Of a DNA stretch of 64,000 bases, positions 4,965 to 58,352 are shown piece after piece; position 1 is the first letter of the stretch, and every line of letters begins with the position of its first letter. The DNA lies in assembly GCA_035610835.1 (NCBI GenBank), contig JAYJML010000069.1, forward strand, positions 1 through 64,000, in the 5' to 3' direction. The position numbers and the translations under genes are program-made. The notes under the pieces are model-generated. The model was not told the origin of the DNA. It saw nothing but the letters and a program-made list of their open reading frames with translations, and did no database searches. The DNA is from Ophiura sarsii (taxonomy: Eukaryota > Echinodermata > Ophiuroidea > Amphilepidida > Ophiuridae).

Positions 4965-5395
4965 TAAGAGGTTCAATATGGGATGAAATACTGAACATGT
5001 GGTAAGAAGATTGCATAACATGACAGCAGAAGCAGGTAAATCCTTTTTTTTTCTCGCCAAGTATGATGCAAAAGACAATAACGTTAATCCCTGTGTAATT
5101 TGATATATGTAGTATAAAAGGAAAAAGTAAGGAGAGGCAATTGAATAAAAAGTAAACAAATATCAGTATTTCAAATAGCCCATTTTCATTGAAAAATGCC
5201 CAGTCAGTGAGACACGAATATTGCGGAAAATCAAACAATTTAGAAAAAATCCAAGCAATTAACTAGTTAGAGAGATTCCATATGATAGTAAACTAATTAT
5301 CTGAACTTATTCGCATGAAACCTGCAGAAAATATGCGCATGCGCAGACGGCAGATCATTTTGAACTGGGCCAAAAATGGCTAAAATCATAATTTT
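4965..5395 (-). repeat. Dispersed ~430 bp repeat, copy A (inverted partner at 61965-62390)
   Basis: The reverse complement of this block matches 61965-62390 over almost its full length. Shared landmarks are TGCGCATGCGCATATTTTCT, GCCTCTCCTTACTTTTTCC, and the CATGTTATGCAAT and ACCACATGTT blocks. It carries no intact gene. The partner copy sits wholly inside a TA-flanked mariner-type element, so this copy is probably part of a decayed relative. Confidence 0.8.
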
Positions 5396-5399
5396 CCCA

Positions 5400-12244: not shown

Positions 12245-15200
12245 TGTCATGAAATGATGTGATGTTTCAAAATAACGCGTCACTTTTTTTTAGTTCTTTT
12301 GTATTTTATTATTTTTGTGATGAAAATTTGTGATGTTATGTATTTTATTATTTTTGTGATACAAATTTGTGATGTTTCAAAATCTCACTTCGAAATTTCT
12401 ATATCTTATGTATAATATTATATTGTGATGAAATGATGTGATGTTTCAAAATAACGCGTCACATTTTTTGAGTTCTTTTGTATTCTATTATTTTTGTGAT
12501 GAAAATTTGTGATGTTTCAAAATCTCACTACGAAATTCCTATTTCTGTGATGAAATGTTGTGATGTTTCAAAATATCGCCTCACTTTTTTGAGTTCTCTT
12601 TTGTATTTTATTATTTTTGTGATGAAAATTTGTGATGTTTCAAAATCTCACTTCGAAATTTCTGTTTCTTATGTATAATATTATATTGTGATGAAAATTT
12701 GTGATGTTTCAAAATATCGCTTGACTTTTTTGTGTTCTTATGTATTTTATTATTTTTGTGATGAAAATTTGTGATGTTTCAAAATCTCACTTCGAAATTT
12801 CTATTTCATATGTATAATATTATATTGTGATGAAATGATGTGATGTTTCAAAATAACGCGTCACTTTTGTTTTAGTTCTTATGTATTTTATTATTTTTGT
12901 GATGAAAATTTGTGATGTTTCAAAATCTCACTACGAAATTCCCATTTCTGTGATGAAATGTTGTGATGTTTCAAAATATCGCCTCACTTTTTTTGAGTTC
13001 TTTTGTATTTTATTATTTTTGTGATGAAAATGTGTGATGTTTCAAAATCTCACTTCGAAATTTCTGTTTCTTATGTATAATATTATATTGTGATGAAAAT
13101 TTGTGATGTTTCAAAATATCGCTTCACTTTTTTGTGTTCTTATGTATTTTATTATTTTTGTGATGAAAATTTGTGATGTTTCAAAATCTCACTTCGAAAT
13201 TTCTATTTCATATGTATAATATTATATTGTGATGAAATGATGTGATGTTTCAAAATAACGCGTCACTTTTGTTTTAGTTCTTATGTATTTTATTATTTTT
13301 GTGATGAAAATTTGTGATGTTTCAAAATCTCACTACGAAATTCCCATTTCTGTGATGAAATGTTGTGATGTTTCAAAATATCGCCTCACTTTTTTTGAGT
13401 TCTTTTGTATTTTATTATTTTTGTGATGAAAATTTGTGATGTTTCAAAATCTCACTTCGAAATTTCTGTTTCTTATGTATAATATTATATTGTGATGAAA
13501 TATGATGTTTCAAAATATCGCTTCACTTTTTTGTGTTCTTATGTATTTTATTATTTTTGTGATGAAAATTTGTGATGTTTCAAAATCTCACTTCGAAATT
13601 TCTATTTCTTATGTATACTATTATATTGTGATGAAATGTTGTGATGTTTCAAAATATCGCCTCACTTTTTTGGGTTCTTATGTATTTTATTATTTTAGTG
13701 ATGAAAATTTGTGATGTTTCAAAATCTCACTACGAAATTTATTTTTCTTATGTATACTATTATATTGTGATGTTTCAAAATATCGCTTCACTTTTTGGGG
13801 GTTCTTATGTAAAATCTCACTTCGAAATTTCTATTTCTTATGTATAATTTTATATTGTGATGAAATGATGTGATGTTTCAAAATAACGCTTAACTTTTTT
13901 GAGTTTTTTTGTATTTTATTATTTTTGTGATGAAAATTTGTGATGTTTCAAAATCTCACTACGAAATTCCCATTTCTGTGATGAAATGTTGTGATGTTTC
14001 AAAATATCGCCTCACTCTTTTCGAGTTCTTTTGTATTTTATTATTTTTGTGATGAAAATTTGTGATGTTTCAAAATCTCACTTCGACATTTCTGTTTCTT
14101 ATGTATAATATTATATTGTGATAAAAATTTGTGATGTTTCAAAATATCGCTTCACTTTTTTGTGTTTTAATGTATTTTATTATTTTTGTGATGAAAATTT
14201 GTGATTTTTCAAAATCTCACTTCGAAATTTCTATTTCATATGTATAATATTATATTGTGATGAAATGATGTGATGTTTCAAAATAACGCGTCACTTTTGT
14301 TTTAGTTCTTATGTATTTTATTATATTTGTGATGAAAATGTGTGATGTTTCAAAATCTCACTACGAAATTCCCATTTCTGTGATGAAATGTTGTGATGTT
14401 TCAAAATATCGCCTCACTTTTTTTGAGTTCTTTTGTATTTTATTATTTTTGTGATGAAAATTTGTGATGTTTCAAAATCTCTCTTCGAAATTTCTGTTTC
14501 TTATGTATAATATTATATTGTGATGAAATGTGATGTTTCAAAATATCGCTTCACTTTTTTGTGTTCTTATGTATTTTATTATTTTTGTGATGAAAATTTG
14601 TGATGTTTCAAAATCTCACTTCGAAAATTCGATTTCTTATGTATACTATTATATTGTGATGAAATGTTGTGATGTTTCAAAATATCGCCTCACTTTTTTG
14701 GGTTCTTATGTATTTTATTATTTTAGTGATGAAAATTTGTGATGTTTCAAAATCTCACTACGAAATTTATTTTTCTAATGTATACTATTATATTGTGATG
14801 TTTCAAAATATCGCTTCACTTTTTGGGGGTTCTTATGTAAAATCTTACTTCGAAATTTCTATTTCTTATGTATAATTTTATATTGTGATGAAATGATGTG
14901 ATGTTTCAAAATAACGCTTCACTTTTTTTAGTTCTTTTGTATTTTATTTTTTTTGTGATGAAAATGTGTGATGTTTCAAAATCTCACTTCGAAATTTCTA
15001 TTTCATATGAATGATATTGTATTGTGATGAAATGATGTGATGTTTCAAAATAACGCGTCACTTTTTTTGAGTTCTTATGTATTTTATTATTTTTGTGATG
15101 AAAATTTGTGATGTTTCAAAATCTCACTTCGAAATTTCTATTTCTTATGTATACTATTATATTGTGATGAAATGTTGTGATGTTTCAAAATATCGCCTCA

Positions 15201-16393
15201 CTTTTTTGGGTTCTTATGTATTTTATTATTTTAGTGATGAAAACTTGTGATGTTTCAAAATCTCACTACGAAATTTCTTTTTCTTATGTATACTATTATA
15301 TTGTGATGTTTCAAAATATCGCTTCACTTTTTGGGGGTTCTTATGTATTTTATTATTTTGTGATGAAAATTTGTGATGTTTCAAAATCTCACTTCGAAAT
15401 TTCTATTTCTTATGTATAATTTTATATTGTGATGAAATGATGTGATGTTTCAAAATAACGCTTCACTTTTTTTTAGTTCTTTTGTATTTTATTATTTTTG
15501 TGATGAAAATGTGTGATGTTTCAAAAATTCACTTCGAAATTTCTATTTCATATGAATGATATTGTATTGTGATGAAATGATGTGATGTTTCAAAATAACG
15601 CGTCACTTTTTTTGAGTTCTTATGTATTTTATTATTTTTGTGATGAAAATTGGTGGTGTTTCAAAATCTCACTTCGAAATTTCTATTTCATATGTATAAT
15701 ATTACATTGTGATGAAATTATGTGATGTTTCAAAATAACGCGTCACTTTTTTGAGTTCTTTTGTATTCTATTATTTTTGTGATGACAATTTGTGATGTTT
15801 CAAAATCTCACTACGAAATTACTATTTCTTATGTATAATATTATATTGTGATGAAATGTTGTGATGTTTCAAAATATCGCCTCACTTTTTTTGAGTTCTT
15901 TTGTATTTTATTATTTGTGTGATGAAAATTTGTGATGTTTCAAAATCTCACTTCGAAATTTCTATTTCTTTTGTATAATTTTATATTGTGATGAAAGGAT
16001 GTGATGTTTCAAAATAACGCTTCACTTGTTTTAGTTCTTTTGTATTTTATTATTTTTGTGATGAAAATGTGTGATGTTTCAAAATCTCACTTCGAAATTT
16101 CTATTTCATATGTATAATATTACATTGTGATGAAATTATGTGATGTTTCAAAATAACGCGTCACTTTTTTGAGTTCTTTTGTATTCTATTATTTTTGTGA
16201 TGACAATTTGTGATGTTTCAAAATCTCACTACGAAATTCCTATTTCTTATGTATAATATTATATTGTGATGAAATGTTGTGATGTTTCAAAATATGGCCT
16301 CACTTTTTTTGAGTTCTTTTGTATTTTATTATTTTTTTGATGAAAATTTGTGATGTTTCAAAATCTCACTTCGAAATTTCTATTTCATATGTA
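12245..16393. repeat. Satellite array, ~140 bp dimeric unit, segment 1
   Basis: About 30 units. Each is a dimer of two ~70 bp halves that both begin TGTGATGTTTCAAAAT. Half A continues CTCACTTCGAAATTTC; half B continues AACGCGTCAC or ATCGCCTCAC and a T-rich run. Halves end in TGTGATGAAA-type words. Higher-order repetition is visible: a 402 bp period (12805 to 13207) and a 1028 bp period (13207 to 14235; also 13502 to 14530). Short open frames here just track the repeats and are not genes. An inverted scrap of the unit lies at about 12170-12205. Confidence 0.95.
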
Positions 16394-16826
16394 CAATTTG
16401 ATATTTTGACTTGATCCCGCTACATGGTTTTACAGATCTGTTTCGTAAGGACCGTTAGGTCCTCACTCGTCAGAAACTTGATACAGAATGATGGTACACA
16501 TTAATATAATAAGCACCAGTGCAATCATGTATACACATAATTGATTTTACATAGAAAGATAACCTGAAAGTTTATATAATGTTCATTGATCACAAGATGT
16601 CACTCAAGAGGTGTATTGTCAAGTACACTTGAATATTGATAGGTCCTATACTTGATCTTCCAGACACACAGATTAACATGATCATTGTCTATTTATCATG
16701 TATGAAGTTGCACAATAAGTGTTTTTTTCTATGGCGGTATGCACTTGTGAGTTCATTCCTTTATAAAGCTCCCTTACTGGTTGAGCACTTTACCTTTTGG
16801 ATGATTTCACATCTATTTTGAATTGT
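16394..16826 (-). mobile_element. Hammerhead-bearing island, copy 1 (433 bp insert in satellite)
   Basis: This non-satellite block interrupts the array and is flanked by a 13 bp direct repeat TATTTCATATGTA (16381-16393 and 16827-16839). That repeat is compatible with a target-site duplication, although the word also belongs to the satellite unit. It contains a hammerhead ribozyme on the minus strand (16427-16477). Hammerheads of this compact form occur in Penelope-like retroelements and retrozyme-type circular RNA elements, so the island may be a fragment of one. No protein is recognised. A near-identical copy is 4615 bp downstream. Confidence 0.65.
16427..16477 (-). ncRNA. Hammerhead ribozyme, type I, copy 1
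   Basis: Minus strand, 5' to 3': GTTT (stem I), CTGACGA (conserved CUGANGA core), GTGAGGACC, loop TAAC, GGTCCTTAC (9 bp stem II with one G-U), GAAA core, then ACA, GATC, TGT (short stem III) and A at the cleavage position, followed by AAAC which pairs with GTTT. Predicted self-cleavage is between 16431 and 16430. Every conserved core nucleotide I know for the family is present. The outer part of stem I is not clearly paired. Confidence 0.82.
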
Positions 16827-17294
16827 TATTTCATATGTATGATATTATATTGTGATGAAATGATGTGATGTTTCAAAATAACGCGTCACTTTTTTGAGTT
16901 CATTTGTATTTTATTATTTTTGTGATGACAGTTTGTGATGTTTCAAAATCTCATCACGAAATTTCTATTTCATATGTATAATATTATATTGTGATGAAAT
17001 GTTGTGATGTTTCAAAATATCACTTCACTTTTTTGTGTTCTTATGTATTTTATTATTTTTGTGATGAAAATGTATTTTATTATTTTTGTGATGAAAATTT
17101 GTGATGTTTTAATATCTCACTTCGAAATTTCTATTTCATATGTATACTATTATATTGTGATGAAATGATGTGATGTTTCAAAATAACGCATCACTTTTTT
17201 TTAGTTCTTATATATTTTATTATTTTTGTGATGAAAATTTGTGATGTTTCAAAATCAAACTTCGAAATTTCTATTTCATATGTATAATATTATA
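16827..17294. repeat. Satellite array, segment 2
   Basis: About three 140 bp units, the last broken in mid-unit (after ATATTATAT) by the LINE insertion at 17295. One internal duplication of TGTATTTTATTATTTTTGTG occurs near 17044-17090. Confidence 0.9.
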
Positions 17295-18386
17295 TACACC
17301 GTCAATGCCACTCTTGGGCGATTTAGGCTGGGATACCATAGAATCTACCCATAATATGATTAAAGCTAATTATTATTCACGTCTTCATAATATGGGCCCT
17401 TACTCAATGCAATGTTTATTATTCATGATCATGGTACTAAATTAAGATGGAAATGGCTTGACTCAATCAATCATATCTTATGTGATCACGGTATGGACTT
17501 TAACTTTTCAAGCATACAACCTAATAACCCCGAATGGGTCCAAGTGTTTAAAAGAATAAGTGCTCAACAAGATTATGATAGATGGTATAAAAATGTATGT
17601 GACAAATCTTCTTTAAAATTTTATGTTCAGTACAAAACACACCCATATTTGGAAAGTTATTTGAAGGACAAGCTTGATTTCTACGGGGCAAGCTTGAAGT
17701 TCAAAGCTAGTTCTAACACGCTTCCTCTAAATGTCAAACTAAGTTCGTGGGAGGTTAATAATGATGGTATGTGCTTACTTTGTTATAGTGGTTGTGAAGA
17801 TATCAAACATTTTATGCTTTCATGTAAGTCTCTACGTGCAATTCGCGACAATGAGCTTCACAACTTAGAATTGAATCTTCGCCGAGTAGATCTCTCCTAT
17901 GTATGGCATTTCTTTAATGTTAGTGACAATGATACACAAATGTGTTTAATTTTAGGTAGTACTTGTTTAAATGTCACCCCCATGGTGAGTAATTACTCAT
18001 ATGATGCATTGATTGATAAACAGTTTGATATATTTTGTAAATCTTATTTAAAACGTGCATGGTCATGTACATGTAGGACAGTTTTGTTGAATGATAATAA
18101 TAGCAGCAATAATGACATTAGTTAATGTACACACTCCACGTTACGCTTCATGATATAAGCTGATTAACCCATCTTTGTCTATGATATAATATCCATGATA
18201 TTCATGATTGTATGCTTATTTTGCTTATTTTCTCTCTTTTGAATTATCATTGTACAGTGTATTTACTTGTATTCTTTGTGTATTTTACTCTTGTTTTTGT
18301 ATTCTTTGGATGCACCACCTCCAGGTGGGTGCCGCTGCTTTGAAAGTGATTTCCGAATAAATAAATAAATAAATAAATAAATAAAT
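17295..18386 (+). pseudogene. 5'-truncated CR1-like LINE, C-terminal domain and (AAAT)n tail, inserted in satellite
   Basis: The insert starts with a frame reading PLLGDLGWDTIE, shifts frame near 17400-17410, and continues as an ORF of over 200 residues to 18125 (WKWLDSINHIL, EWVQVFKRIS, CDKSSLKFYVQYK, LKFKASSNTLPLN). A Cys/His motif CLLCYSGCEDIKHFMLSC (C-x2-C-x6-H-x4-C) follows. This is the region downstream of RT in CR1-like elements. The RT itself is missing, as in 5' truncation during reverse transcription. The 3' UTR has a CACCACCTCCAGGTGGGTG hairpin and ends in (AAAT)n at 18354-18386. Both junctions interrupt a satellite unit. It was copied with the array to 21862-22184. Confidence 0.85.
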
Positions 18387-21008
18387 ATTGTGATGAAATG
18401 TTGTGATGTTTCAAAATATCGCCTCACTTTTTTTGAGTTCTTTTGTATTTTGTTATTTTTGTGATGAAAATTTGTGATGTTTCAAAATCTCACTACGAAA
18501 TTTCTATTTCATATGTATAATATTATATTGTGATGAAATATTGTGATGTTTCAAAATATCACTTCACTTTTTTGTGTACTTATGTATTTTATTATTTTTG
18601 TGATGACAATTTGTGATGTTTTAAAATCTCACTTCGAAATTTCTATTTCATATGTATACTATTATATTGTGATGAAATGATGTGATGTTTCAAAATAACG
18701 CTTCACTTTTTTTAGTTCTTTTGTATTTTATTATTTTTGTGATGAAAATGTGTGATGTTTCAAAATCTCACTTCGAAATTTCTATTTCATATGTATAATG
18801 TTATATTGTGATGAAATGATGTAATGTTTCAAAATAACGCGTCACTTTTTTGAGTTCTTTTGTATTCTATTATTTTTGTAATGACAATTTGTGATGTTTC
18901 AAAATCTCACTACGAAATTCCTATTTCTTATGTATAATATTATATTGTGATGAAATGTTGTGATGCTTCAAAATATCGCCTTACTTTTTTTGAGTTCTTT
19001 TGTATTTTATTATTTTTGTGATGAAAATTTGCGATGTTTCAAAATCTCACTACGAAATTTCTATTCCATATGTATAATATTATATTGTGATAAAATGTTG
19101 TGATGTTTCAAAATATCACTTCACTTTTTTGTGTTCTTATGTATTTTATTATTTTTGTGATGAAAATTTGTGATGTTTTAAAATCTCACTTCGAAATTTC
19201 TATTTCATATGTATACTATTATATACTATTATATTGTGATGAAATGTTGTGATATTTCAAAATATCGCCTCACTTTTTTGGGTTCTTATGTATTTTATTA
19301 TTTTTGTGATGAAAATTTGTGATGTTTCAAAATCTCACTACGAAATTTCTTTTTCTTATGTATAATATTATATTGTGATGAAATGATGTGATGTTTCAAA
19401 ATAACGCGTCACTTTTTTTGGGTTCTTATGTATTTTATTTTTTTGTGATGAAAATTTGTGATGTTTCAAAATCTTACTTCGAAATTTCTATTTCTTATGT
19501 ATAATTTTATATTGTGATGAAATGATGTGATGTTACAAAATACCGCTTTCCTTTTTGTTAGTTCTTTTGTATTTTATTATTTTTGTGATGAAAATGTGTG
19601 ATGTTTCAAAATCTCACTTCGAAATTTCTATTTCATATGAATGATATTGTATTGTGATGAAATGATGTGATGTTTCAAAATTATGCGTCATAAGAACACT
19701 TTTTTTGAGTTCTTATGTATTTTATTATTTTTGTGATGACAATTTGTGATGTTTCAAAATCTCACTACGAAATTTCTATTTATTATGTTTAATATTATAT
19801 TGTGATGAAATGTTGTGATGTTTCAAAATATCGCTTCACTTTTTTTGGGTTCTTACGTATTTTATTATTTTTGTGATGAAAATTTGTGATGTTTCAAAAT
19901 CTCACTTCGAAATTTCTATTTCTTATGTATAATATTATATTGTGATGAAATGATGTGATGTTTTAAAATAACGCGTCACTTTTTTTGGGTTCTTATGTAT
20001 TTTATTTTTTTGTGATGAAAATGTGTGATGTTTCAAAATCTCAAAACGAAATTCCTATTTCTTATGTATAATATTATATTGTGATGAAATGTTGTGATGT
20101 TTCAAAATATCGCCTCACTTTTTTTGAGTTCTTTTGTATTTTATTACTTTTGTGATGAAAATTTGTTGTTTCAAAATCTCACTTCGAAATTTCTATTTCA
20201 TATGTATAATATTATATTGCGATGAAATGATGTGATGTTTCAAAATAACGCGTCACTTTTTTTGAGTTCTTTTGTATTTTATTATTTTTGTGATGAAAAT
20301 TTGTGATGTTTCAAAATCTCACTTCGAAATTTCTATTTCTTTTGTATAATTTTATATTGTGATGAAATGTGATGTTTCAAAATAACGCTTCACTTTTTTT
20401 AGTTCTTTTGTATTTTATTATTTTTGTGATGAAAATATGAGAATATGTATACTATTATATTGTGATGAAATGATGTGATGTTTCAAAATAACGCATCACC
20501 TTTTTTTTAGTTCTTATGTATTTTATTATTTTTGTGATGAAAATTTGTGATGTTTCAAAATCTCATTTCGAAATTTCTATTTCTTATGTATAATTTTATA
20601 TTGTGATGAAATGATGTGATGTTTCAAAATAACGCTTCACTTTTTTTAGTTCTTTTGTATTTTATTATTTTTGTGATGATATTGTGTGATGTTTCAAAAT
20701 CTTACTTCGAAATTTCTATTTCATATGTATAATATTATATTCTGATGAAATGATGTGATGTTTCAAAATAACGCTTCACTTGTTTTAGTTCTTATGTATT
20801 CTATTATTTTTGTAATGACAATTTGTGATGTTTCAAAATCTCACTACGAAATTCCTATTTCTTATGTATAATATTATATTGTGATGAAATGTTGTGATGT
20901 TTCAAAATATCGCCTCACTTTTTTTGAGTTCTTTTGTATTTTATTATTTTTGTGATGAAGATTTGTGATGTTTCAAAATCTCACTTCGAAATTTCTATTT
21001 CATATGTA
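18387..21008. repeat. Satellite array, segment 3
   Basis: About 18-19 units of the same 140 bp dimer, with occasional truncated units (for example near 19220 and 20435) and point differences. It resumes directly after the LINE (AAAT)n tail and runs to the second hammerhead island. Confidence 0.93.
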
Positions 21009-21441
21009 CAATTTGATATTTGGACTTGATCCCGCTACATGGTTTTACAGATCTGTTTCGTAAGGACCGTTAGGTCCTCACTCGTCAGAAACTTGATACA
21101 GAATGATGGTACACATTAATATAATAAGCACCAGTGCAATCATGTATACACATAATTGATTTTACATAGAAAGATAACCTGAAAGTTTATATAATGTTCA
21201 TTGATCACAAGATGTCACTCAAGAGGTGTATTGTCAAGTTCACTTGAATATTGATAGGTCCTATACTTGATCTTCCAGACACACAGATTAACATGATCAT
21301 TGTCTATTTATCATGTATGAAGTTGCACAATAAGTGTTTTTTTCTATGGCGGCATGCACTTGTGAGTTCATTCCTTTATAAAGCTCCCTTACTGGTTGAG
21401 CACTTTACCTTTTGGATGATTTCACATCTATTTTGAATTGT
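21009..21441 (-). mobile_element. Hammerhead-bearing island, copy 2
   Basis: Nearly identical to 16394-16826 (offset 4615 bp; a few substitutions, for example GGCGGCATGC against GGCGGTATGC). It is flanked by the same 13 bp word at 20996-21008 and 21442-21454. It reflects duplication of the array segment rather than a second insertion, since the neighbouring LINE piece was copied too. Confidence 0.8.
21042..21092 (-). ncRNA. Hammerhead ribozyme, type I, copy 2
   Basis: The 51 bases are identical to copy 1: CTGACGA core, 9 bp stem II, GAAA, short stem III and the UA cleavage dinucleotide. Predicted cleavage is between 21046 and 21045 on the minus strand. Confidence 0.82.
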
Positions 21442-21861
21442 TATTTCATATGTATGATATTATATTGTGATGAAATGATGTGATGTTTCAAAATAACGCG
21501 TCACTTTTTTTGAGTTCATTTGTATTTTATTATTTTTGTGATGACAATTTGTGATGTTTCCGACAAAATCTCACTACGAAAATATCACTTCACTTTTTTG
21601 TGTTCTTATGTATTTTATTATTTTTGTGATGAAAATGTATTTTATTATTTTTGCGATGAAAATTTGTGATGTTTTAATATCTCACTTCGAAATTTCTATT
21701 TCATATGTATACTATTATATTGTGATGAAATGATGTGATGTTTCAAAATATCGCATCACTTTTTTTTTAGTTCTTATATATTTTATTATTTTTGTGATGA
21801 AAATTTGTGATGTTTCAAAATCAAACTTCGAAATTTCTATTTCATATATATAATATTATAT
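21442..21861. repeat. Satellite array, segment 4
   Basis: About three units corresponding to 16827-17294, with a roughly 50 bp deletion and a small rearrangement near 21558-21585. Confidence 0.88.
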
Positions 21862-22184
21862 ACACCGTCAATGCCACTCTTGGGCGATTTAGGCTGGGAT
21901 ATTTGAAGGACAAGCTTGATTTCTACGGGGCAAGCTTGAAGTTCAAAGCTAGTTCTAACACGCTTCCTCTAAATGGCAAACTAAGTTCGTGGGAGGTTAA
22001 TAATGATGGTATGTGCTTACTTTGTAAAATTTTATGCTTTCATGTAAGTCTCTACGTGCAATTCGCGACAATGAGCTTCACAACTTAGAATTGAATCTTC
22101 GCCGAGTAGATCTCTCCTATGTATGGCATTTCTTTAATGTTAGTGACAATGATACACAAATTTGTTTAATTTTAGGTAGTACTT
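21862..22184 (+). pseudogene. Second, internally deleted copy of the satellite-embedded LINE tail
   Basis: It begins at the same junction as 17295 and then lacks about 324 bp (17335-17658 equivalent), about 25 bp near CTTTGT, and everything after TTAGGTAGTACTT, including the (AAAT)n tail. Beyond 22184 one short satellite scrap (to about 22235) closes the array. Confidence 0.85.
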
Positions 22185-30485: not shown

Positions 30486-32384
30486 GGCTTCCATCTAATG
30501 GTCACGTCACGTCACGTGTGGCTAACCATGATATAGTATGTGTGCAACTCAATGGTGACATTTCATGTCACATTGTGCGTCTAAAATGAGAACCATTAGA
30601 GTTATGCAACTCAAATTTTGGAATGCGATTAGTTTAGTTTAGTTTATAGTTAATCTAGTTAGTTATTTTAAGTAATTAAATAGTAACTTATTATTTAATT
30701 CATTCATTTAAGTAATTGATTAAAATTAATTAATTTAATTGATTAATATTAATTCATTGTTAATTGATTGATTGATTGATTGATTCACATTTAATTAAAT
30801 AATCATTTATTTATTAATGTTATTAAGTTATTACAATTAATTATTAATTAATTATCAATTTGATTTATTAATTAATTATCAATTTGATTTATTAATTCTT
30901 TAACTTATCAATTCATTAATTTATTAATTTATTAATTCATTAATTTATTAATTCATTAATGTATTAATTCATTAATTTATTAATTCATTAATTTATTATT
31001 TCATTAATTTATTAATTCATTAATTTATTAATTCATTAATTTATTAATTCATTAATTTATCAATTCATTAATTTATTAATTAATTATTAATTCATTAATC
31101 TATTAATTCATTAATTTATGAATTTATTAATTTATTATTAATTTATTTGTAATTAATTAATTTATTAATTCATTAATTTATTATTTCATTAATTTATTAA
31201 TTCATTAATTTATTAATTCATTAATTTATTAATTCATTAATTTATTAATTCATTAATTTATTAATTCATTAATTTATTAATTCATTAATTTATTAATTCA
31301 TTAATTTATTAATTCATTAATTTATTAATTCATTAATTTATTAATTCATTAATTTATTAATTCATTAATTTATTAATTCATTAATTTTTTAATTCATTAA
31401 TTTATTAATTCATTAATTTATTAATTCATTAATTTATTAATTCATTAATTTATTAATTCATTAATTTATTAATTCATTAATTTATTATAACATTAATTTA
31501 TTAATTCATTAATTTATGCATTCATCATTAATTTATTTGTAATTAATTTATTTATTGATTCATTAATTTATTAATTCATTAATTTATTAATTCATCAATT
31601 CATTAATGTATTAATTCATTAATTTATTAATTCATTATTTCATTAATTTATTAATTTATTAATTTATTAATTCATTAATTTATTAATTCATTAATTCATT
31701 AATTTATTAATTCATTAATTTATTAATTCATTAATTTTTGAATTCATTATTCATTTATTTGTAATTTATTTATTTATTAATTCATTAATTTATTAATTCA
31801 TTAATTGAATTATTCATTATTTTATTAATTCATTAATTTATTAATTCATTAATTTATTAATTCATTAATTAATTCATTCATTAATTTGTTAATTCATTAA
31901 TTTATTAATTCATTAATTTATTAATTCATTAATTTATTAATTCATTAATTTATTAATTCATTAATTTATTAATTCATTAATTTATTAATTCATTAATTTA
32001 TTAATTCATTATTAATTTATTTGTCATTAATTAATTAATTAGTTATTTGATTAATATTAATTCATTCATTATTAATCGATAGTTTACGTACTTACGTAGT
32101 AATTTCACATACATTCGTAATATTGTTATTTTTACCATGTACGTACAGACATTTTTTTTACCATGTCCCCTCTGGGTGTTCGTACTTACTTAACCACACG
32201 TACCAAATTCAACAAAAAATCTCCCAAACACTTATTTAGTGTTGTGTGCCATTAATCCCTTCTAGACTCTAAATACATCACCCAATACCAACACACCCCC
32301 ACCCCTCACACCAGATGCATTCAAAACATCACCCAAACACTTATCCACATCACTTAAAGTGACGTGACCATTGGAGGTAAGCCA
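30486..32384. repeat. AT-rich array with 16 bp period (ATTAATTCATTAATTT), inside inverted ends
   Basis: From about 30640 to 32075 the sequence is ATTAATTCATTAATTT-type repeats with minor variants. The flanks at 30487-30513 (GGCTTCCATCTAATGGTCAC) and 32352-32382 (inverted GGCTTACCTCCAATGGTCAC) are inverted copies. The array may therefore lie inside a TIR element or foldback structure that expanded internally. Confidence 0.75.
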
Positions 32385-35666: not shown

Positions 35667-38522
35667 TATGGCAAGTATATTGCACAATAGAACAGAAAAA
35701 CCAGGTTTATCAACCGATAAACCTGGATTTTCGCCGATAAACTTGGTTTTTCAATTCGATTGTCATAGTTAATCGAAAAACCAGGTTTATCAAAAAAAAC
35801 CTATGACAATCGAATTGAAAAACCAATTTTATCTGCGAAAAACCAGCTGAGGTTTCTCGGTCGATAAACCTGGTTTTTCAAAAACTATGACAATCGAATT
35901 CGAAAAACCAGGAAAGACCGCCGTTTGACTGGGGAAAAACCCTTCAGAAAAGAAATAAGTTGGCGCACCTAACGCAAGTACACCAAATTTCAGAAATCAT
36001 CGGATACCATTGATCCTAACCTTATTCCGCATTTCCCCTAAATTAAAAGTTACACACTTTCATCAAATTTGCCTCGAAAGTTCGCGTTCGAATCACGAAA
36101 AAACCCTGAAAATTCGGCAGCTTTGCAAATATTTACATGGTGAACAATTAGCGATCGATTTAATTATCTAGAAACAATCCAGTCCCTAAAATCCATATGA
36201 AATGAATAAAATCAGGTTTATTTGTGAACCAAACTTATTTTCTTGCATGAAACAGTGCTATTGTAATATGAAACGCTGATCAGGTCGTATCTAAAATAAT
36301 AAATAGGATTTCTGCACCAAAATGTTAGGTGTTATTTTTTTCATTTTGCAAACACCATATTTCCGATGTCAAATACACTTTTTAGTACTACCAAATAATG
36401 GTGTACACGTCTATTAGCCTGTTACTGTAAACTATTTTGTTAAACCACACTTTTGACTCATAATTATATAAAACAATATCAAAATTGATATATAAACTTG
36501 AAAAAAATAGTGTTTCGAAACAACCAGAACTCTTCGAAACTCTTGCGTACTGTGGCACATCTTCAAAAAGACTAAAGCTGCGAACATACTACACTTACAT
36601 ATACGCTCCAACGCTGCGCTCTCGCTCAACGGTAGCGTTGGGCCATAGCGTTGGGTCAGACTTTGTACGCTCAGTGCAACGCTATCAAGTTGACCCGATT
36701 TGAACATGAGCGTTGGATGTAGCGTTAACTGCTCTCTCGAAAAGCGTTGATTAATCAAATTATCGGAAAACGCTTTGCTGATCAAGCGTTGCTTCAATCC
36801 TTTTCGTAAGCTGGGGACGTTGGAGCCAGTGGCGGCACCAGCATAATTGAGGGGGTGCATTTGGGGGGGAGGGGCAAAAAAAAATTAGAGGGGGGGGCAT
36901 AAACAAAAACGATGCGTTCGAAGCGCGCACATTTTGTGTGCCTTTTTTACGCTTAAATGGTCAAATTTGCTCTAATACTAACTAATTTGGTATGAATATG
37001 CTCGCTTGCGCGCAAAATTTAGCTGCTAAAAATGGTCAACATTTGGTCTTATAGACGTTATTCATATTATTAGCGATTTCAGGCTAAAGAGGGAGACATA
37101 CTCGATGTGACGTCACTAATCACAACGAAAGCGAGGCCAACGATGGTAAATTACGTAAACATTGGTGTCATGTGACATGAAAAAAAATGTTGGGAGGGGG
37201 GAGGGGCAAACTGGGGGTGGGGGGGGGGGGGGGGGGGGGGGGGACTGTCATTTAGAATGCTGATTCAGGGACTTCTCTGAGTTCTAGTATGAGTAACGTA
37301 CGGTAAAATCGTTCATGGAATAAAACCCAGTCACATTGTAATTGCTTCGTACATTTGTATGTGTGTCGTAGGCTAACGTGTTTACATCATATGTTATCAT
37401 ATTCGATTGTTGGCGTTCTACGAGAAGTTCTTCTGACTGTCGATGTTTCGTGTGTAGGCCACCATATTGTTTGTGCAATCTCGATTCCTTATTTTAGAGT
37501 ACAAATGTCGTATTTAATATCACGCGTGAAACCATGTAGCGATCACACGGCGGTTTTCAATTCGATTGTCATAGGTTTTTTTGATAAACCTGGTTTTTCG
37601 ATCGAAAAACCAGGTTTTTCGAATTCGATTGTCATAGTTTTTGAAAAGCCTGGTTTTTCGATCGAAAAAACTAGGTTTCTCGATCGAAAAACTAGGTTTC
37701 TCGATCGAAAAACCAGGTTTCTCGGCCGATAAACCAGGTTTCTCGGCCGATAAACCTGGTTTTTCAAAAACTATGACAATCGAATTAGAAAAATCTGGTT
37801 TTTCAATCGAAAAACCAGGTTTATCAAAAAAAACTATGACAAACGAATTGAAAAACTAAGTTTATCGACGAAAATCCAGGTTTTCTCGGTCGATAAACCT
37901 GTTTTTTCGAATCGAAAAACCAGGTGTTTCGAATTCGATTGTCATAGTTTTTGAAAAACCAGGTTTCTCGGTCGATAAACCTGGTTTTTTAAAAAAACGA
38001 TGACAATCGAATTCGAAAAACCTGGTTTTTCAATCGAAAAACCAGGTTTATCAAAAAACCTATGACAATCGAAAATGAAAAACCAAGTTTATCGGCGAAA
38101 AACCAGGTTTCTCGGTCGATAAACCTGTTTTTTCAAAAACTATGACAATCGAAGTCGAAACACCTGGTTTTTCGATCGAATAACCAGGTTTATCAAAAAA
38201 AAACTATGACTATCGAATTGAAAACAAAGTTTATCGGCGAAAAACCTGGTTTCTCGGTCGATAAACCAGGTTTTTCAAAAACTATGACAATCGAATTCGA
38301 AAAAACCTGGTTTTTCGATTGATAAACCAGGTTTATCGATTCGATTGTCATAGTTTTTGATAAACCTGGTTTATCAGCCGAAAAACTAAGTTTATCAAAA
38401 AACTATGACAATCGAATTGATAAACCTGGTTTTTCGATTTGATAAACCTGGTTTTTCGATCGAAAAACCAGGTTTATCAACGAAAAAACAGGTTTTTCTG
38501 TTCTATTGTGCAATTTGCCATA
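35667..38522. mobile_element. Foldback-type element with repeat-built arms, 2.86 kb
   Basis: Outer ends are inverted copies: TATGGCAA, then TTGCACAATAGAACAGAAAA at the left, and the reverse complement at the right (38483-38522). GTAGTG flanks both sides (35661-35666 and 38523-38528), a candidate 6 bp target duplication. Both arms (35667-35930 and 37545-38522) are built from many inverted copies of AAAACCAGGTTT(A/T)TCG, with GATTCGATTGTCATAG-like spacers. The arm-core junctions are also inverted (CCGCCGT and ACGGCGG). The core, 35931-37544, has no recognised gene. It contains a palindrome-rich block with AGCGTTGG words (36600-36835), possibly the 5' end of another element (CAGTGGCGGCACC, 36835), and a 25 nt G run at 37219-37243. 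Confidence 0.8.
37219..37243 (+). repeat. Poly(G), 25 nt
   Basis: Uninterrupted G run inside the foldback element core. Confidence 0.9.
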
Positions 38523-52688: not shown

Positions 52689-55600
52689 TTATTTTATATT
52701 CCAGTATATTTTGCAATGTTCTAAATCTTTCTGTTCTATTTTTACCTTTCTTTTCGAGACTGCAATAATTTCGTCAATCTTCTTAATTTCCAACATGAAC
52801 AGAATTGAAATAGGTGTTGTTTTATTTGTATCATAATAAATTATTCTTGATTTATATACGGCATAAGATGCTAGTTCAATTAACATATTTGTAAAATTAA
52901 AATTAGAATTACGGATGTTCCAACCGCATATGATTTTTTCCAAAGATATCTCAAAATCGTATTCCTTCATCAAGAATTGTATATATTTGGAAAATTTAAT
53001 CCAGAAATGTTTGTTATAATTGCATTTTACAAAAAAGTGGTCATAATTATCTAAACAATTACATACATTACATTTGTCTGAGACACTTAGTTGCCATTTA
53101 CATAAATTCCTTTTACAGCAAATAAGATTGTTCATGAGATTATATTGAAAATGGCCTATCTTGTTAACTATTCTGTTTCTAATTTTGAAAGAGAATATTT
53201 TACTCCAATCATTACTATTGATTTTTTGTTTTTCCCAATACTGTATACAAGAGGCATCTTCTGAGTGAGTATTTAACATTTTATATATATCTTTGGTCTG
53301 TAAAATACTAATGTGTTTGACCTTATTCCTAACATTAAAAAATGTACGACTTTGTTTCTTGTGTGAACACAAATTGTTCTGTTTTACTTCGTGTTTCCAT
53401 TTTTTTGGAATTGCAGACACAAGCATGTGCAGCTTGAATATATTTGTTGGACATTTAACTTTTCTTGACAGTTCCGTCAAGTTAATAAACCTGTTTTCAG
53501 TTACAATATCATGAACATGTATAATACCAGCATTTATCCACTTTGTATAATACAGCATTTGGCCCTTATACCTAACATTGTTATTTCCCCATATAATATC
53601 ATTCTTATGAAACGCACCGTCTTCATCTTTTTTTTCCTGCAGAACATACCAAGCTTTCAGAACGTCTTTATAAAATGGTGGAGGATTTTTTTAAAATACT
53701 TTGTTTACATCTTTACCTTTACAGTTAAGTTTGAGTAACAAGGATAGACCACCAATTGGCTCTAGTAGATATTTCACAATCTTATTCCAAATTCCAGTAT
53801 TATTTATATCTAACATTCGTGATACCCATTTGATTCTTAGAGCATTTATCTGACATTCAATATCAGTCATTTGTAGACCTCCATTATCCATGCATTGTGT
53901 TGTGGTGCGTCGCTTTACTTTTTCTTTACCGGACCCCCATAAAAATGTATACAGAATTGTATTTACTTCTTTAATAACGTAATCAGGTACTATGATACAC
54001 GATGCATTGTACAGTATCTGTGAGATGCCAATTGTTTTTATAATACTGATCTTTCCATAATATGTTAGTTTTCTCGCTTTCCAGCGGCTTAAAGTCTTTT
54101 CCAATTTTACAATATTTGGTTTCCAATTTAAATCTTCAACTTGTTTTTTATCTTTTCCAAAGTGTATTCCTAAACTTTTCACAGGATCATTCGACCACTT
54201 TATCAATACCTTTTGGTTCAAACTTGGCTTGTTTGGTCCCAACCATAAACCTTCTGTTTTATTATTGTTAACAGTTATCCCATATACCTCACTAAATTTA
54301 TATATTGTGTCGAATACATTAACAACTGAAGTTTCATCTTCTACCATCACAGTTGTATCGTCAGCCATTTGAACAATTTTTACTTCTAAATCATTTCCCA
54401 CTTTAATACCTTTTACACTCTGATTTTGCTTGATATTTACAGATAACATTTCTGTTGCTAAAATGAACAGCAGAGCTGAAAAGGACAACCTTGTCTTATT
54501 CCTCTTTGAACTTGAAACGATTCTGAAAGCCAGCCATTAACTAAAACACTGCTATTAATCTTTGTATATAAAGTTGATATCCATTTTTTGAATTGTATCC
54601 CGAAACCCATTTTCGATAAGCATTTATCTAAAAATGGAATTTCAAGCGTATCAAAAGCCTTTTTAAAATCAATAAACAGAATAGCTCCATTTTGTTTATT
54701 TTGTGTACAATAATCTATAACATCTTCAATTAGACGTACGTTTTGTCCTATAAAGCGCCCTTTTATATACCCAGTCTGTTCTGCACTTATTAGTTTGCCA
54801 ATAACTTGTTGCAATCTGGCTGCTAGAGCCGCAGTACAAATCTTGTAGTCGTAATTTAAAAGCGAAATTGGACGCCAATTATCTAGATTGGTTCTGTCTC
54901 CTTTTTTATACAGAAGTGTGATTATGCCACGTTTTTGTGTGAATGATAGTTCTGTTTTTACAAATCCTTCATTGATAGAATTAATCAATAGGTCTTTAAT
55001 ATCATCCCAAAATGCCTTATAAAAATCAGCTGTAAGACCATCGGAACCGGGAGCTTTGTTATTCTTGAGTTGTTTAACAACATTTTCACACTCATCGATT
55101 GTCAATTGAGGACCCTAGATCTAAAAGGGGGTTACGTCACAATCTTGTGAAATTGTAGTTAGTATCAGTTTTCTGCTACAAGGAGGATCTCTGCACCCTC
55201 CGTTCAAATCTTACAGTTAAGTCATGCGGGAAAGCTGTGTAAGAGTCCATGGGAGGTACAACCTGAGTGGGTCAAGTCCACACATGGACACAATGAAACC
55301 CAGTTTTTGCCATTTTTCTCAATGTGACTTAACCCCCTTTTAGATCTAGGGTCCTCAATTCACCTTCACACGTTAGAGCTTCTTCTTCGGTTAAGCACCT
55401 CACTTCATGATTGCTGAAGTACTCGTGCATATCATTGATATCGATATCTTTTGAAGCGTACAAGTTAGAATAGTATTGTACCGTTTCCTTTAGAATATCA
55501 CTAGTGCTATTTACAGTTTTGCCATTTTGTTTTCCGATATGCATTTCTTGACACTGTTACTTTTTTCCAGGCCCATAAAATATTTTGTATTCTTTTCTCC

Positions 55601-56707
55601 TTCTTCATACCATTTGACTCTTGAACGTATTATTGCACCTCTAGTTTTTTGTGTGTAATACTTTTCAAGTTTGTCTTTACATTCAATATAATGTTTTTGA
55701 TTTTTTTTTGGATCTACATTCCAATCTTCTTCACCCTGCAGTACTTCAGACTCTAAATTGGCTATCTTTTCATTTTGTGTTTTCACTTTTTGTTTACAAT
55801 AATTAACAGTGAAATCACGTATATTAATTTTACATAACTCCCATGTCAATTGGCCCGAAAAGTTGTATTTACTACTTTCTACCTTAGCATCATAAATAAC
55901 TTTTTTAATGTTATTCTTGTAAACTTGATCTTGAACAAGGGAGGAGTTGAACTTCCAATAGCCAGCACCAGTTTTTTGCTTTACCAAATAGATCATTTTT
56001 AAAGAAACTGCATTATGGTCACTTTTTATCGCAGGTCTTATATCTACAGATTGTACATAATTATTCAAAACATCACTTATTAACCAATAGTCTAATCTAG
56101 ATGCTATATTTAGGGAAAGTTGTCGCCATGTATATTGTCTTATGTGAGGGTGTTTCTTCCTCCAGATATCTATAAGACTGAATTTTCTTATCAATTTGTC
56201 TAGCTGTTTACATTTTTTTGTAACAGCCTTTGACATTTAAAGTATCATATGCATGGTTTTGAACACAATTGAAATCACCACCTATGATTATATTATATTT
56301 TGCATTTTTATGGATCCACTTTTGAGTCTTTCTGTAAAAGGGATTCTTTAGAGCTTCAACTGTGGGTGCATATATATTTACAATAGAATATTTGTTTTCT
56401 CCGATTTGCACATTTACCAGAATTCTTCTACCATCAATTGTTGAGTGATGATTTCGATATTGATATTAGTTCCTTTTTTGAATAGAATTGAGACTCCTCT
56501 GCTATGTAGTGAACCAAAAGAACTTAAAATAGAACCATTCCATGTTTTTTTAATATACATTTCAATTTTTTCATCTAAATATGTTTCTTGTAAAAGTACA
56601 ATATCAGCATGTTGATTATTTAACCATTTAAAAATACTCTGTCTTTTTTCTTTATTGCGTATTCCTCTCACATTGAGGGTTATTACGTGGATACATCTAT
56701 GAGACAT
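52689..56707 (-). pseudogene. L1/Tx1-like ORF2 (endonuclease plus RT), frameshifted
   Basis: Collinear minus-strand frames give the APE endonuclease (ITLNVRGIRNKEKRQ, DIVLLQETYLD, SIVNIYAPT, IIGGDFNCV, SRLDYWL, SDHNAV). RT follows: NNKAPGSDGLT, NWRPISLLN, GYIKGRFIGQNVRL, ILFIDFKKAFD, QRGIRQGCP, and catalytic QMADDTTVMVEDE, with Met in place of the usual Tyr/Phe before ADD. The C terminus has CNVCNCLDNYDHFFVKC (C-x2-C-x7-H-x4-C). Frame breaks lie near 56413, 56215, 55540, 54475 and between 53690 and 53558. The MITE at 55108-55356 interrupts the frame just before the RT domain. Translation begins about 30 bp after the ORF1 stop. Confidence 0.9.
55108..55356. mobile_element. 249 bp MITE inside ORF2, AATT flanks
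   Basis: A 33 bp TIR beginning GAGGACCCTAGATCTAAAAG is inverted at the other end with one mismatch. AATT flanks both sides (55104-55107 and 55357-55360). Reading across the insert with AATT counted once gives CEGELTIDECENVV in frame, so excision would restore ORF2 locally. Confidence 0.9.
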
Positions 56708-56736
56708 TTTATATTATTTACATAGTCAGTTGTTTT

Positions 56737-57936
56737 TTACCTTCTTCTTCCTTTCGGAGAATATCTGCATTTCCTCCTTCTTCTGCTACCAGTTTTTTGT
56801 TTCCTTTTTCTACCATCATTTGGGGATGGTGTCTGAGCACTCATGCTTGAAAAGTTCATGTGGCCGTGTTCTTGGTCATCATGTTCTAGTTCAGCAGTTG
56901 CTGTGCCATCATGGTCACTGTTACTTGAAGATGAGTAGTTCTCTTCTTCAGTGTCTTTATTCTCGGTTTGTGCAGGAACAGGTTTTTTACCCCTTGTTTG
57001 TTCCACTCGCGGATCACTGGTAATTACGAGTTTACCTGCAGTTAGTTTTAGGATACCACTTTGCTTGGGTTCCTCTGTAGGTGTCACTGTAGGTGTCACT
57101 GTAGGTGTCACTGTAGGTGTCGCTGTAGGTGTCACTGTAGGTGTGACGTTGCTAGGTGCGGTTGGTTCTGTGATTTGCGCCTCCTTTGGTGGATTTGTTT
57201 TTCTTGGGCAGTCCCAGTCACTGTGTCCTTTTGCTCGGCATGTGTTACAGTAAGGATTTTTGCCTCTACATTCTCCTGTACGGTGACCTTCCTTGCAGAG
57301 TTGGCATTTCTCTTCATTTCTGCATGTGGCTGAATAATGTCCTTTCTCGTAACAGTTACCGTACGTCACATCTTTCATTTGTGGTTGCCCTTGGTGGTAT
57401 AACTTAGCTTTAAAGTCATTTACTGCCACATATCTTGGAAGGGGTTCTTTTGGCATTTTGATCTCGATGCGTCTGTTTCCTGTTAGACAGTTCACTAATT
57501 GGCCATTCACTCTGAGCTTTTCTTTAATACAGTCTCCAAGTATCTCAGCTCCAAGGCTACGAACCTTGTTCATAATCTCTGAGTCGTGGACTGATAGCGG
57601 GACTTCACAAACTCGCACCATGATGGAGTTTGTGGAAGTATGTAAGAAGGGATTGTGTTCGTACAAGGTAACATTTTTTCCCCTGATATCAAGGCCTACG
57701 GCCAGAAGCTTGCATCTTGATCGCTGATCATTGATATAGAGACGCCATAAGCCACCGATACGTTGGACTCCCTCTATGTATTCTGAGCGTATCATTTTAC
57801 TTAATTGGACGTATATTTCCTCATTCTGAACGTAGTCACCTTTGTCTGAATAGTTCACGACGTCTCTGTTTTTTAGAAATACTACTGGTAGTACACCCCG
57901 TTGTTGTTGGGAGTGTGCAGGCTGTGTATCGGGCAT
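56737..57936 (-). CDS. L1/Tx1-like ORF1 (gag-like nucleic-acid-binding protein), intact frame
   Basis: A 399-residue uninterrupted ORF. Residues ~14-180 look like one or two RRM-like folds (VVFLKNRDVV, GLWRLYIND, SIMVRVCEVPLSVHDSEI). Three zinc-knuckle positions follow at 192-205, 211-223 and 230-243. The third is canonical (CNTCRAKGHSDWDC). The second, CQLCKEGHRTGEC, is one residue short between C and H. The first has Tyr in place of its first Cys (YGNCYEKGHYSATC). Residues ~264-287 are a Thr-Pro-Thr-Val repeat encoded by a 12 bp minisatellite. The C terminus is acidic, then strongly basic (GSRRRRKCRYSPKGRRR). In the family, ORF1 coats the element RNA. The start ATG is the first in a long 5' leader. 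Confidence 0.88.
   Translation of the reverse strand: MPDTQPAHSQQQRGVLPVVFLKNRDVVNYSDKGDYVQNEEIYVQLSKMIRSEYIEGVQRIGGLWRLYINDQRSRCKLLAVGLDIRGKNVTLYEHNPFLHTSTNSIMVRVCEVPLSVHDSEIMNKVRSLGAEILGDCIKEKLRVNGQLVNCLTGNRRIEIKMPKEPLPRYVAVNDFKAKLYHQGQPQMKDVTYGNCYEKGHYSATCRNEEKCQLCKEGHRTGECRGKNPYCNTCRAKGHSDWDCPRKTNPPKEAQITEPTAPSNVTPTVTPTATPTVTPTVTPTVTPTEEPKQSGILKLTAGKLVITSDPRVEQTRGKKPVPAQTENKDTEEENYSSSSNSDHDGTATAELEHDDQEHGHMNFSSMSAQTPSPNDGRKRKQKTGSRRRRKCRYSPKGRRR
57074..57145 (-). repeat. 12 bp minisatellite in ORF1 (TPTV repeat)
   Basis: Six copies of TGTAGGTGTCAC (plus strand) with one GTCGC variant. In-frame on the minus strand, giving Thr-Pro-Thr-Val/Ala repeats. Confidence 0.92.
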
Positions 57937-58352
57937 TGTCGTCTGTGCAGGTAAGTAACTTGGTTCGGATCAGCGCTCGGGTGTGTGCAAGTATAGTAAA
58001 TGCAGTCACTGTTCACTGGTCCGTGTTCACTCTACACGAGGGTCAATACAATCACGTTTAGTCAGTGATACAATGCAATAGGTGTACACGGTTCGTGTGT
58101 ACAGTATATTACGTACTGGTGTTTTTTAAAGTTTTGATTTTGATAGAGTTTACCTCAAATATTGTCGAAATAGGCACTATTTCAACCAAGATATAATCTC
58201 CGGAGCCTCTCCTGTACTTGTTACTGATGGTTCGTGAACACGTTTTGGTAAAGTTCCGTTGAAATAGGCGGGTTTTGTAATGTTTTGTCGGAACCGATGT
58301 CTACGCGACGTATCACACAGGCAGCAGCAATTATCGATCCGTAATTTGATTT

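What the first reader, a model, noticed from the sequence alone, without database searches (positions are those of the whole stretch)
16427..16477. Hammerhead ribozyme inside a satellite array
The minus strand shows the full hammerhead core (CTGACGA, 9 bp stem II, GAAA), a three-base-pair stem III and UA at the cleavage site, with 4 bp of stem I. Known hammerheads of this compact design occur in Penelope-like elements and retrozymes. One embedded in a 140 bp satellite raises the possibility that satellite transcripts are processed, or that a circular RNA element seeded here.
Basis: partly seen in the sequence, partly recalled or inferred. Interest (0 to 1): 0.78.

Follow-up and report, generated by a model that had tools for sequence, protein, structure and literature searches.

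The report
Penelope retroelement hammerhead in satellite DNA
The motif is a real hammerhead ribozyme, but it belongs to a short broken copy of a Penelope-like jumping gene that landed in the satellite repeat and was later duplicated with it; its relatives in the same genome suggest that it may work as a pair rather than alone.

Summary
The hammerhead core is present as described (minus strand, 16427-16477); an identical copy at 21042-21092 was missed. Neither lies in the 139-bp satellite unit. Each sits in a 433-bp insert with 13-bp flanking direct repeats; the two are one insertion copied by a duplication of the array. In the 1.57-Gb genome the insert has many dispersed copies. They share one 3' end, differ at the 5' end, and lead to an open 749-codon frame of a Penelope-like retroelement. 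Related Penelope subfamilies carry hammerheads at the same place with different letters: in 14 anchored sequences 174 of 182 helix cells pair, shuffle mean 128, maximum 142. So the motif is real. Its shape is unusual: stem II of 9 bp and a palindromic stem III. Rfam 15 finds no hammerhead here or in ten Penelope loci tested. In none of 14 is the monomer's best fold a full hammerhead; in 7 of 14, this one included, the best homodimer leaves the whole core free. A known kind of thing. Cleavage and transcription are untested.

The parts
16427..16477 (-). Hammerhead ribozyme, copy 1. Stem I 16474-16477 with 16427-16430; CUGACGA 16467-16473; stem II hairpin 16445-16466 (9 bp, loop UAAC); GAA 16442-16444; self-complementary stem III tract ACAGAUCUGU 16432-16441; A17 at 16431; predicted cut 16431/16430.
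   Evidence: covariation with sibling subfamilies
21042..21092 (-). Hammerhead ribozyme, copy 2, identical; predicted cut 21046/21045
16394..16762 (-). 3' part of a Penelope-like element: last codons of the ORF (stop at 16691-16689, read by eye against L130), 3' non-coding region and hammerhead; 97.6% identical to L130 9121-9484
   Evidence: ORF; sequence
16762..16826 (+). Tail of the same element (start of the next unit's 5' region), in the opposite orientation to the hammerhead part, as after a 5' inversion (twin priming); in L127 and L139 it follows the hammerhead part directly on the same strand
   Evidence: in L127, L139 and the window the match to the full element L130 ends after ATTGT (read by eye)
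16381..16393 (.). Left 13-bp direct repeat TATTTCATATGTA (putative target-site duplication; the satellite unit itself holds this stretch)
16827..16839 (.). Right 13-bp direct repeat TATTTCATATGTA
21009..21441 (.). Second copy of the 433-bp insert with the same flanking repeats; 412 of 414 compared bases identical
12327..16393 (.). 139-bp satellite array left of the insert (about 69-bp half units); the array resumes at 16827, from 18385 and from 21442 to about 21859
18377..21901 (.). Duplicate of 13844-17335 (89% over 3621 columns), which carried the insert into its second copy

Best explanation
[quoted passage not shown] A 5'-truncated copy of the element's 3' end inserted into the satellite array by target-primed reverse transcription, with an inversion and a 13-bp target-site duplication, and a segmental duplication of the array copied it once. 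In sibling elements the ribozyme lies a few hundred bases 3' of the ORF, and in tandem copies at both ends of a unit. Helix III is too weak to close well alone. Two hammerheads on one tandem transcript would pair through helices I and III into a double hammerhead that cuts after GUA and frees unit-length RNA with a 5'-OH. Shown: motif, insert, family, ORF, covariation. Inferred from energy models: the dimer. Inferred only: insertion mechanism, cleavage and its role. At this locus the ribozyme is most likely a passenger; it could cut minus-strand satellite transcripts if they are made.
For: Own-genome search: 66 matches, 40 of 420 candidates scored. Ten 10-kb stretches share one 3' end with staggered 5' ends. 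Open 749-codon frame (stop to stop) in L130, hammerhead about 210 nt past its stop. Homologues of that protein: 3123 at E <= 0.001 among 7996 scored. YRDD invariant in 29 aligned proteins. AlphaFold model (pLDDT 86) matches telomerase TERT first in PDB, then mostly other reverse transcriptases. Units of 2467 and 2469 bp with hammerhead cores at both ends and 730- and 735-codon frames between (L180, L184). Of 50 PLE loci examined, 31 have a hammerhead by the stem descriptor and 10 more by the core blocks alone. In 14 anchored sequences 174 of 182 cells pair, 2000 shuffles mean 128, maximum 142; stems I+II 118 of 126 unslid against 37 and 25 slid by one base. Dimer: for 76-, 91-, 121- and 161-nt pieces the unconstrained homodimer is exactly the dimeric hammerhead, 36 of 36 pairs, core 22 of 22 free, 8 kcal/mol below two monomers; siblings.
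Against: No Rfam hammerhead hit here nor in 10 PLE loci of this genome. In a control Rfam found hammerheads in 5 of 10 phage loci, at 25-45 bits, all below gathering score. As a monomer the hammerhead fold lies 4.1 kcal/mol above the best fold, a gap reached by only 5 of 101 phage hammerheads. A 66-nt piece forms 28 of 36 dimer pairs and a 191-nt piece only 18. Full dimer core in only 7 of 14. The covariation set was picked by the core motif and holds close pairs (L194/L195, L167/L173, L163/L170). Nine of 50 PLE loci showed no hammerhead within the stretch examined. GIY-YIG endonuclease is weakly supported. In the Anolis PLE PAc, hammerhead mutants did not change insertion in vitro, the ribozyme cut only with protein added, and no RNA-seq ends lay at the cut site (PMC11167929 passages), which speaks against a needed role. 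No RNA data here.
Confidence: 0.9

Rival explanations
1. It is a non-autonomous retrozyme (metazoan non-LTR type): a short non-coding unit that makes small RNA circles with its hammerhead and was seeded into the satellite.
For: Size (433 bp), low GC (0.342), type I hammerhead, direct repeats longer than 4 bp; all close to what is described for mussel, coral and axolotl retrozymes (PMC7229834, abstract and Results parts 1-2 of 3 read).
Against: The ten copies read continue 5' by differing lengths, two sharing 2.3 kb, and share only the 3' end; L130 holds one open ORF there. The window copy has one hammerhead, no tandem units, and an inverted tail; its RNA is not unusually self-paired (z -1.24).
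Confidence: 0.04
2. Part of the satellite repeat itself, as in newt satellite repeats, so that satellite transcripts are cut to unit length.
For: It lies in the array and has been copied with it.
Against: Two motifs in the whole array; the other array units have none. The sequence between the satellite junctions matches a dispersed retroelement. Of 66 genome matches only these two run the full 401-base query, though only 40 of 420 candidates were scored.
Confidence: 0.03
3. A chance or dead look-alike: a hairpin whose flanks happen to spell the hammerhead core.
For: No Rfam match, weak score in my own model, monomer prefers another fold.
Against: About 0.0015 weaker hits expected per window; the same core with covarying stems recurs at the same place in sibling subfamilies.
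Confidence: 0.03

Closest known systems
Hammerheads of Penelope-like elements (Cervera & de la Pena 2014; Lunse, Weinberg & Breaker 2017; neither is held; known through passages of PMC7761336 and PMC6155905)
   Same: Type I hammerhead in the terminal repeat of a PLE, weak alone, proposed to act as dimers in tandem copies
   Different: The reviews say that PLE motifs usually lack helix III. Here a 9-10-nt tract whose ends pair with each other is kept in all 14 sequences parsed, 8 of them perfect palindromes (read); stem II is 8-10 bp in 6 of the 13 rows parsed and 4-6 bp in the rest.
Hammerhead of the Anolis PLE PAc (PMC11167929, passages read)
   Same: HHR at the junction of tandem units next to the ORF; element ends in a 'tail' set by internal start of reverse transcription, which may explain the tail seen here
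   Different: PAc is described with stems I and II only; its HHR cut only when the PLE protein was added
Repeat-type hammerhead of Aedes aegypti (PMC3088659, legend of Fig. S8 seen as a passage)
   Same: Palindromic stem and loop III that would form a 10-bp stem in a dimer, as ACAGAUCUGU does here
   Different: The passage does not tie it to a PLE; sequence not compared
Newt and salamander satellite hammerheads / metazoan retrozymes (PMC7229834)
   Same: Type I; the amphibian ones have a weak helix III and cut better as dimers
   Different: Those are units of 150-450-bp tandem repeats; this one belongs to a coding retroelement

Membership tests
Hammerhead ribozyme, type I | Core CUGANGA, GAA, A15.1-U16.1, H17 | tested here: met
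   GTA triplet also in 7 of 102 phage hammerheads. Core letters recalled, not from a call
Hammerhead ribozyme, type I | Three helices with stem I open | tested here: met
   covariation in 14 sequences
Hammerhead ribozyme, type I | Helix II of usual length with loop-loop contact to helix I | tested here: inconclusive
   Stem II is 9 bp; 101 of 102 phage controls have 4-6 bp and one has 2 (their fetch pattern favours short stems). Contact not testable.
Rfam RF00163 / RF00008 | Score at or above gathering threshold | tested here: not met
   ten PLE loci also none at E <= 1
Hammerhead ribozyme, type I | Self-cleavage | not testable with these tools
   needs RNA in vitro
Penelope-like element | Reverse transcriptase of the TERT-related kind | tested here: met
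   YRDD invariant in 29 aligned; Foldseek first hit TERT 3du5, E 6.5e-9, TMq 0.30, other reverse transcriptases next. Pfam RVT_1 in only 1 of 29, below its cut-off
Penelope-like element | C-terminal GIY-YIG endonuclease | tested here: inconclusive
   Pfam GIY-YIG above cut-off in the Solemya velum relative P0009, in 1 of 29 alignment members, none in L130; invariant Y590, G592, R601, H605, taken as GIY-YIG residues from recall
Penelope-like element | Tandem units with pseudo-LTR and HHR at both ends | tested here: met
   Sibling subfamily C: L180 and L184, 2467 and 2469 bp. For the window's own subfamily only the tandem junction was seen (L127, L139)
Metazoan non-LTR retrozyme | Short non-coding tandem repeats made into RNA circles | tested here: not met
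   Copies extend into an ORF and are dispersed; circles not testable
Satellite-unit hammerhead | Motif in each repeat unit | tested here: not met
   Two motifs in the whole window

The most novel reading that the evidence does not exclude
In this genome several Penelope subfamilies have kept a self-complementary or nearly self-complementary helix III while its letters changed. This could make the double hammerhead the only active form: cutting happens only when two hammerheads sit on one transcript, that is, when a whole unit flanked by both is present. The ribozyme would then act as a check for full-length tandem RNA. The window's pair, 4,615 bases apart on one strand, could by the same rule free one long satellite RNA.
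Probability: 0.25. Interest if true: 0.6.

Novelty: new member of a known kind. Interest (0 to 1): 0.38.

Why it matters
It settles a suspected ribozyme as a Penelope hammerhead and gives a set of siblings, some with open ORFs, in which dimer-only cleavage can be tested. Rfam 15 models found none in the window or in the ten Penelope loci tested, so counts of hammerheads based on them may be too low. And it is a clear case of a ribozyme carried into satellite DNA by a transposon and copied with it.

Tried and rejected
Rejected: satellite-unit hammerhead; retrozyme; chance (see rivals). An early reading that the left satellite runs on to 16409 was dropped: 16394-16409 belongs to the element. A Helitron or MITE was thought of and dropped when the copies proved 5'-truncated with one 3' end. 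Two same-strand copies on C82 (L139, 2833 bp apart) were first taken for a tandem PLE; L139 holds no PLE frame of 150 codons or more, so they look like duplicated truncated copies.

Led nowhere: protein search with an ORF of 362 residues (nothing); viral contigs and genome-contig scans with the hairpin (nothing); PLE protein in viral contigs (nothing); PDB sequence search (nothing convincing). RF00163 and hairpin-pattern counts over the whole genome did not complete. One search ended without output and the last part crashed; redid the dimer without constraints. One search gave no simulated hit in 200 Mb where searches gave 3 and 6.

Selections before counts. One search tested 10 of the 120 phage loci; one search tested 12. 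One search listed 102 phage hits; 101 entered the energy test and 18 entered the model. The 50 PLE loci are the 30 that fetched and 20 stretches that I chose for spread among its other matches. Of the 30, 18 have the stem descriptor in the sense strand, 9 more the core blocks by a looser pattern, one (L188) only a core pattern, 2 none. Of the 20, 10 have the descriptor, 3 more, 7 none. One search examined 23 loci, parsed 13 and failed on 10. One search used 14 sequences: 11 of those 13 (L197 and L198 repeat L196) plus L170, L173 and L205 with their unpaired cells. Of 42 rows, five are places fetched twice (L123/L133, L124/L129, L125/L130, L126/L131, L127/L132), leaving 37 places; six rows had a broken core.

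Full report
OBSERVATION. The minus strand of 16427-16477 reads GUUU CUGACGA GUGAGGACC UAAC GGUCCUUAC GAA ACAGAUCUGU A AAAC. The hammerhead core positions fit. The bare pattern CTGANGA...GAAA has five matches in the window, which shuffles also reach (30 of 100); a descriptor that asks for all three stems leaves this motif and an identical one at 21042-21092. Simulated sequence with the same dinucleotide make-up gave 3, 0 and 6 weaker hits in 80, 200 and 480 Mb of strand, about 0.0015 per window.

NEGATIVE RESULTS FIRST. Rfam 15 finds no hammerhead in the window at gathering score, nor at E up to 10 in 64 kb, 301 or 59 bases. So Rfam is an imperfect judge even there. A type I model built from 18 of those phage ribozymes ranks the two copies first and second in the window, but at 13.3 bits and E = 0.25; in 12 phage loci it lists 43 matches of 17.8-71.5 bits, training sequences among them. 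The difference lies in shape: 101 of 102 phage controls have stem II of 4-6 bp (one has 2), the candidate 9 (the fetch pattern favours short stems). In 70 of 101 controls the hammerhead is the best fold, while in the candidate it lies 4.1 kcal/mol above the best fold, a gap reached by 5 of 101.

WHERE IT SITS. The array is a 139-bp satellite. The motif is in a 433-bp stretch, 16394-16826, bounded by TATTTCATATGTA on both sides. The second copy, 21009-21441, has the same borders; 412 of 414 compared bases agree. The stretch 13844-17335 matches 18377-21901 at 89%, and a LINE fragment beyond it is also present twice, so the second copy came with a segmental duplication.

WHAT IT BELONGS TO. The genome tool answered one DNA query: the window is on contig 488 of a 1.57-Gb genome of 748 contigs, and the insert has 66 matches, with 40 of 420 candidates scored. 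Ten stretches of about 10 kb were read. They share one 3' end shortly after the hammerhead and differ in 5' length; the longest shared stretch is 2.3 kb. L130 holds an open frame of 749 codons, stop to stop, with the hammerhead about 210 nt past its end. That protein has 3123 homologues at E <= 0.001 among 7996 scored. An alignment of 29 keeps YRDD and several C, Y, G, R and H residues at the C-terminus. Pfam gives nothing for L130 itself, GIY-YIG for the Solemya velum relative, and RVT_1 and GIY-YIG in one member each of 29. An AlphaFold model (pLDDT 86, pTM 0.79) matches telomerase reverse transcriptase first, then bacterial reverse transcriptases. Reading these signs together as Penelope-like rests partly on recalled knowledge of that class.

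THE INSERTION. Bases 16394-16762 are the element's 3' part on the minus strand, from the last codons to just past the hammerhead; 16762-16826 are the next 65 bases of the element, on the plus strand. In L127 and L139 the two parts are contiguous on one strand, and in L127, L139 and the window the likeness to the full element L130 ends at the same base, after ATTGT (read by eye). This is what twin priming or a similar 5' inversion during target-primed reverse transcription would leave (inference). A shared tail end within the next unit agrees with the internal start of reverse transcription described for the Anolis element PAc (PMC11167929, passages).

SIBLINGS AND COVARIATION. A search with the last 300 residues found 133 matches, 131 of 3112 candidates scored, at 48-100% identity. 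I examined the 30 loci that it fetched and 20 further stretches 3' of ORFs that I chose. The stem descriptor finds a hammerhead in 18 of 30 and 13 of 20; core blocks alone are found in 10 more of the 30; 2 and 7 show none. The letters differ: stem I GUUU/AAAC, UUGUUC/GAACAA, GCAA/UUGC, AUUAUAC/GUAUAAU, UCAC/GUGA, UUCUAC/GUAGAG; stem III ACAGAUCUGU, ACAGUUCUGU, ACAAAUUUGU, ACAGUGCUGU, ACUACGUAGU and others. In 14 sequences anchored on the core, 174 of 182 cells pair; 2000 shuffles give mean 128 and maximum 142; sliding partners by one base drops stems I and II from 118 to 37 or 25 of 126. The set was chosen by its core and some members are near twins, so this is not an unbiased sample, but the changes of stem letters are real. 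Rfam finds no hammerhead at E <= 1 in ten of these loci, one of this family and nine siblings.

HOW IT LIKELY WORKS. In none of the 14 is the monomer's best fold a full hammerhead. For this motif, pieces of 76, 91, 121 and 161 nt fold as homodimers into exactly the dimeric hammerhead, with 36 of 36 pairs and all 22 core bases free; 66 nt gives 28 pairs and 191 nt only 18, with 16 of 22 core bases free. Among the 14, ten have the whole stem III intermolecular and seven have the whole core free. Two sibling units carry a hammerhead core at each end, 2467 and 2469 bp apart, around frames of 730 and 735 codons (L180, L184), so one transcript of such a unit could hold the two halves of a dimer. Dimer action is described for newt and viroid hammerheads and proposed for PLE ones (PMC6155905 and PMC7761336, passages; PMC3088659, passages). 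Against a needed role stands PAc, where hammerhead mutants did not change insertion in vitro. Cleavage, transcription and use by the element are inferred. Of 42 rows for this family's copies (37 places), 36 keep both core blocks, so the family is young or the motif is kept.

VERDICT. It is a new member of a known kind, with two points for specialists: a helix III tract that pairs with itself in all 14 sequences parsed, where reviews describe PLE hammerheads as usually lacking helix III, and motifs that Rfam did not see in the loci tested.

Noticed in passing
L123 (G000:C5), minus strand, about 1406-1375: A classical-looking type I hammerhead (CUGAUGAG ACUC ACGA GAGU CGAAA, GUC triplet, GCUA/UAGC stem I, read by eye) 148 nt downstream of a copy of this element; perhaps a retrozyme in the same genome.
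   Followed up: partly
17294-18387: A LINE 3' fragment with a zf-RVT ORF (17391-18125) and an (AATA)8 tail lies in the same satellite array.
   Followed up: partly
37554-38498 and 35695-35912: AT-rich repeats built on AAACCTGGTTTTTCG that are strongly self-complementary; Rfam scores them as miRNA precursors below threshold.
   Followed up: no
L130 6820-6950: A long near-perfect palindrome directly at the 5' end of the element copy with the open frame; Rfam gives miRNA scores below threshold at the same place (L159, about 27-175).
   Followed up: no
30695-32076: A 16-bp tandem array (TTAATTCATTAATTTA), about 86 copies.
   Followed up: no
4994-5399 and 61971-62375: A 407-column inverted repeat at 91% identity near the two ends of the window.
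   Followed up: no
52692-57969, minus: A broken LINE with RVT_1 and zf-RVT pieces and, by eye, a zinc-knuckle ORF1-like protein without a Pfam match.
   Followed up: no
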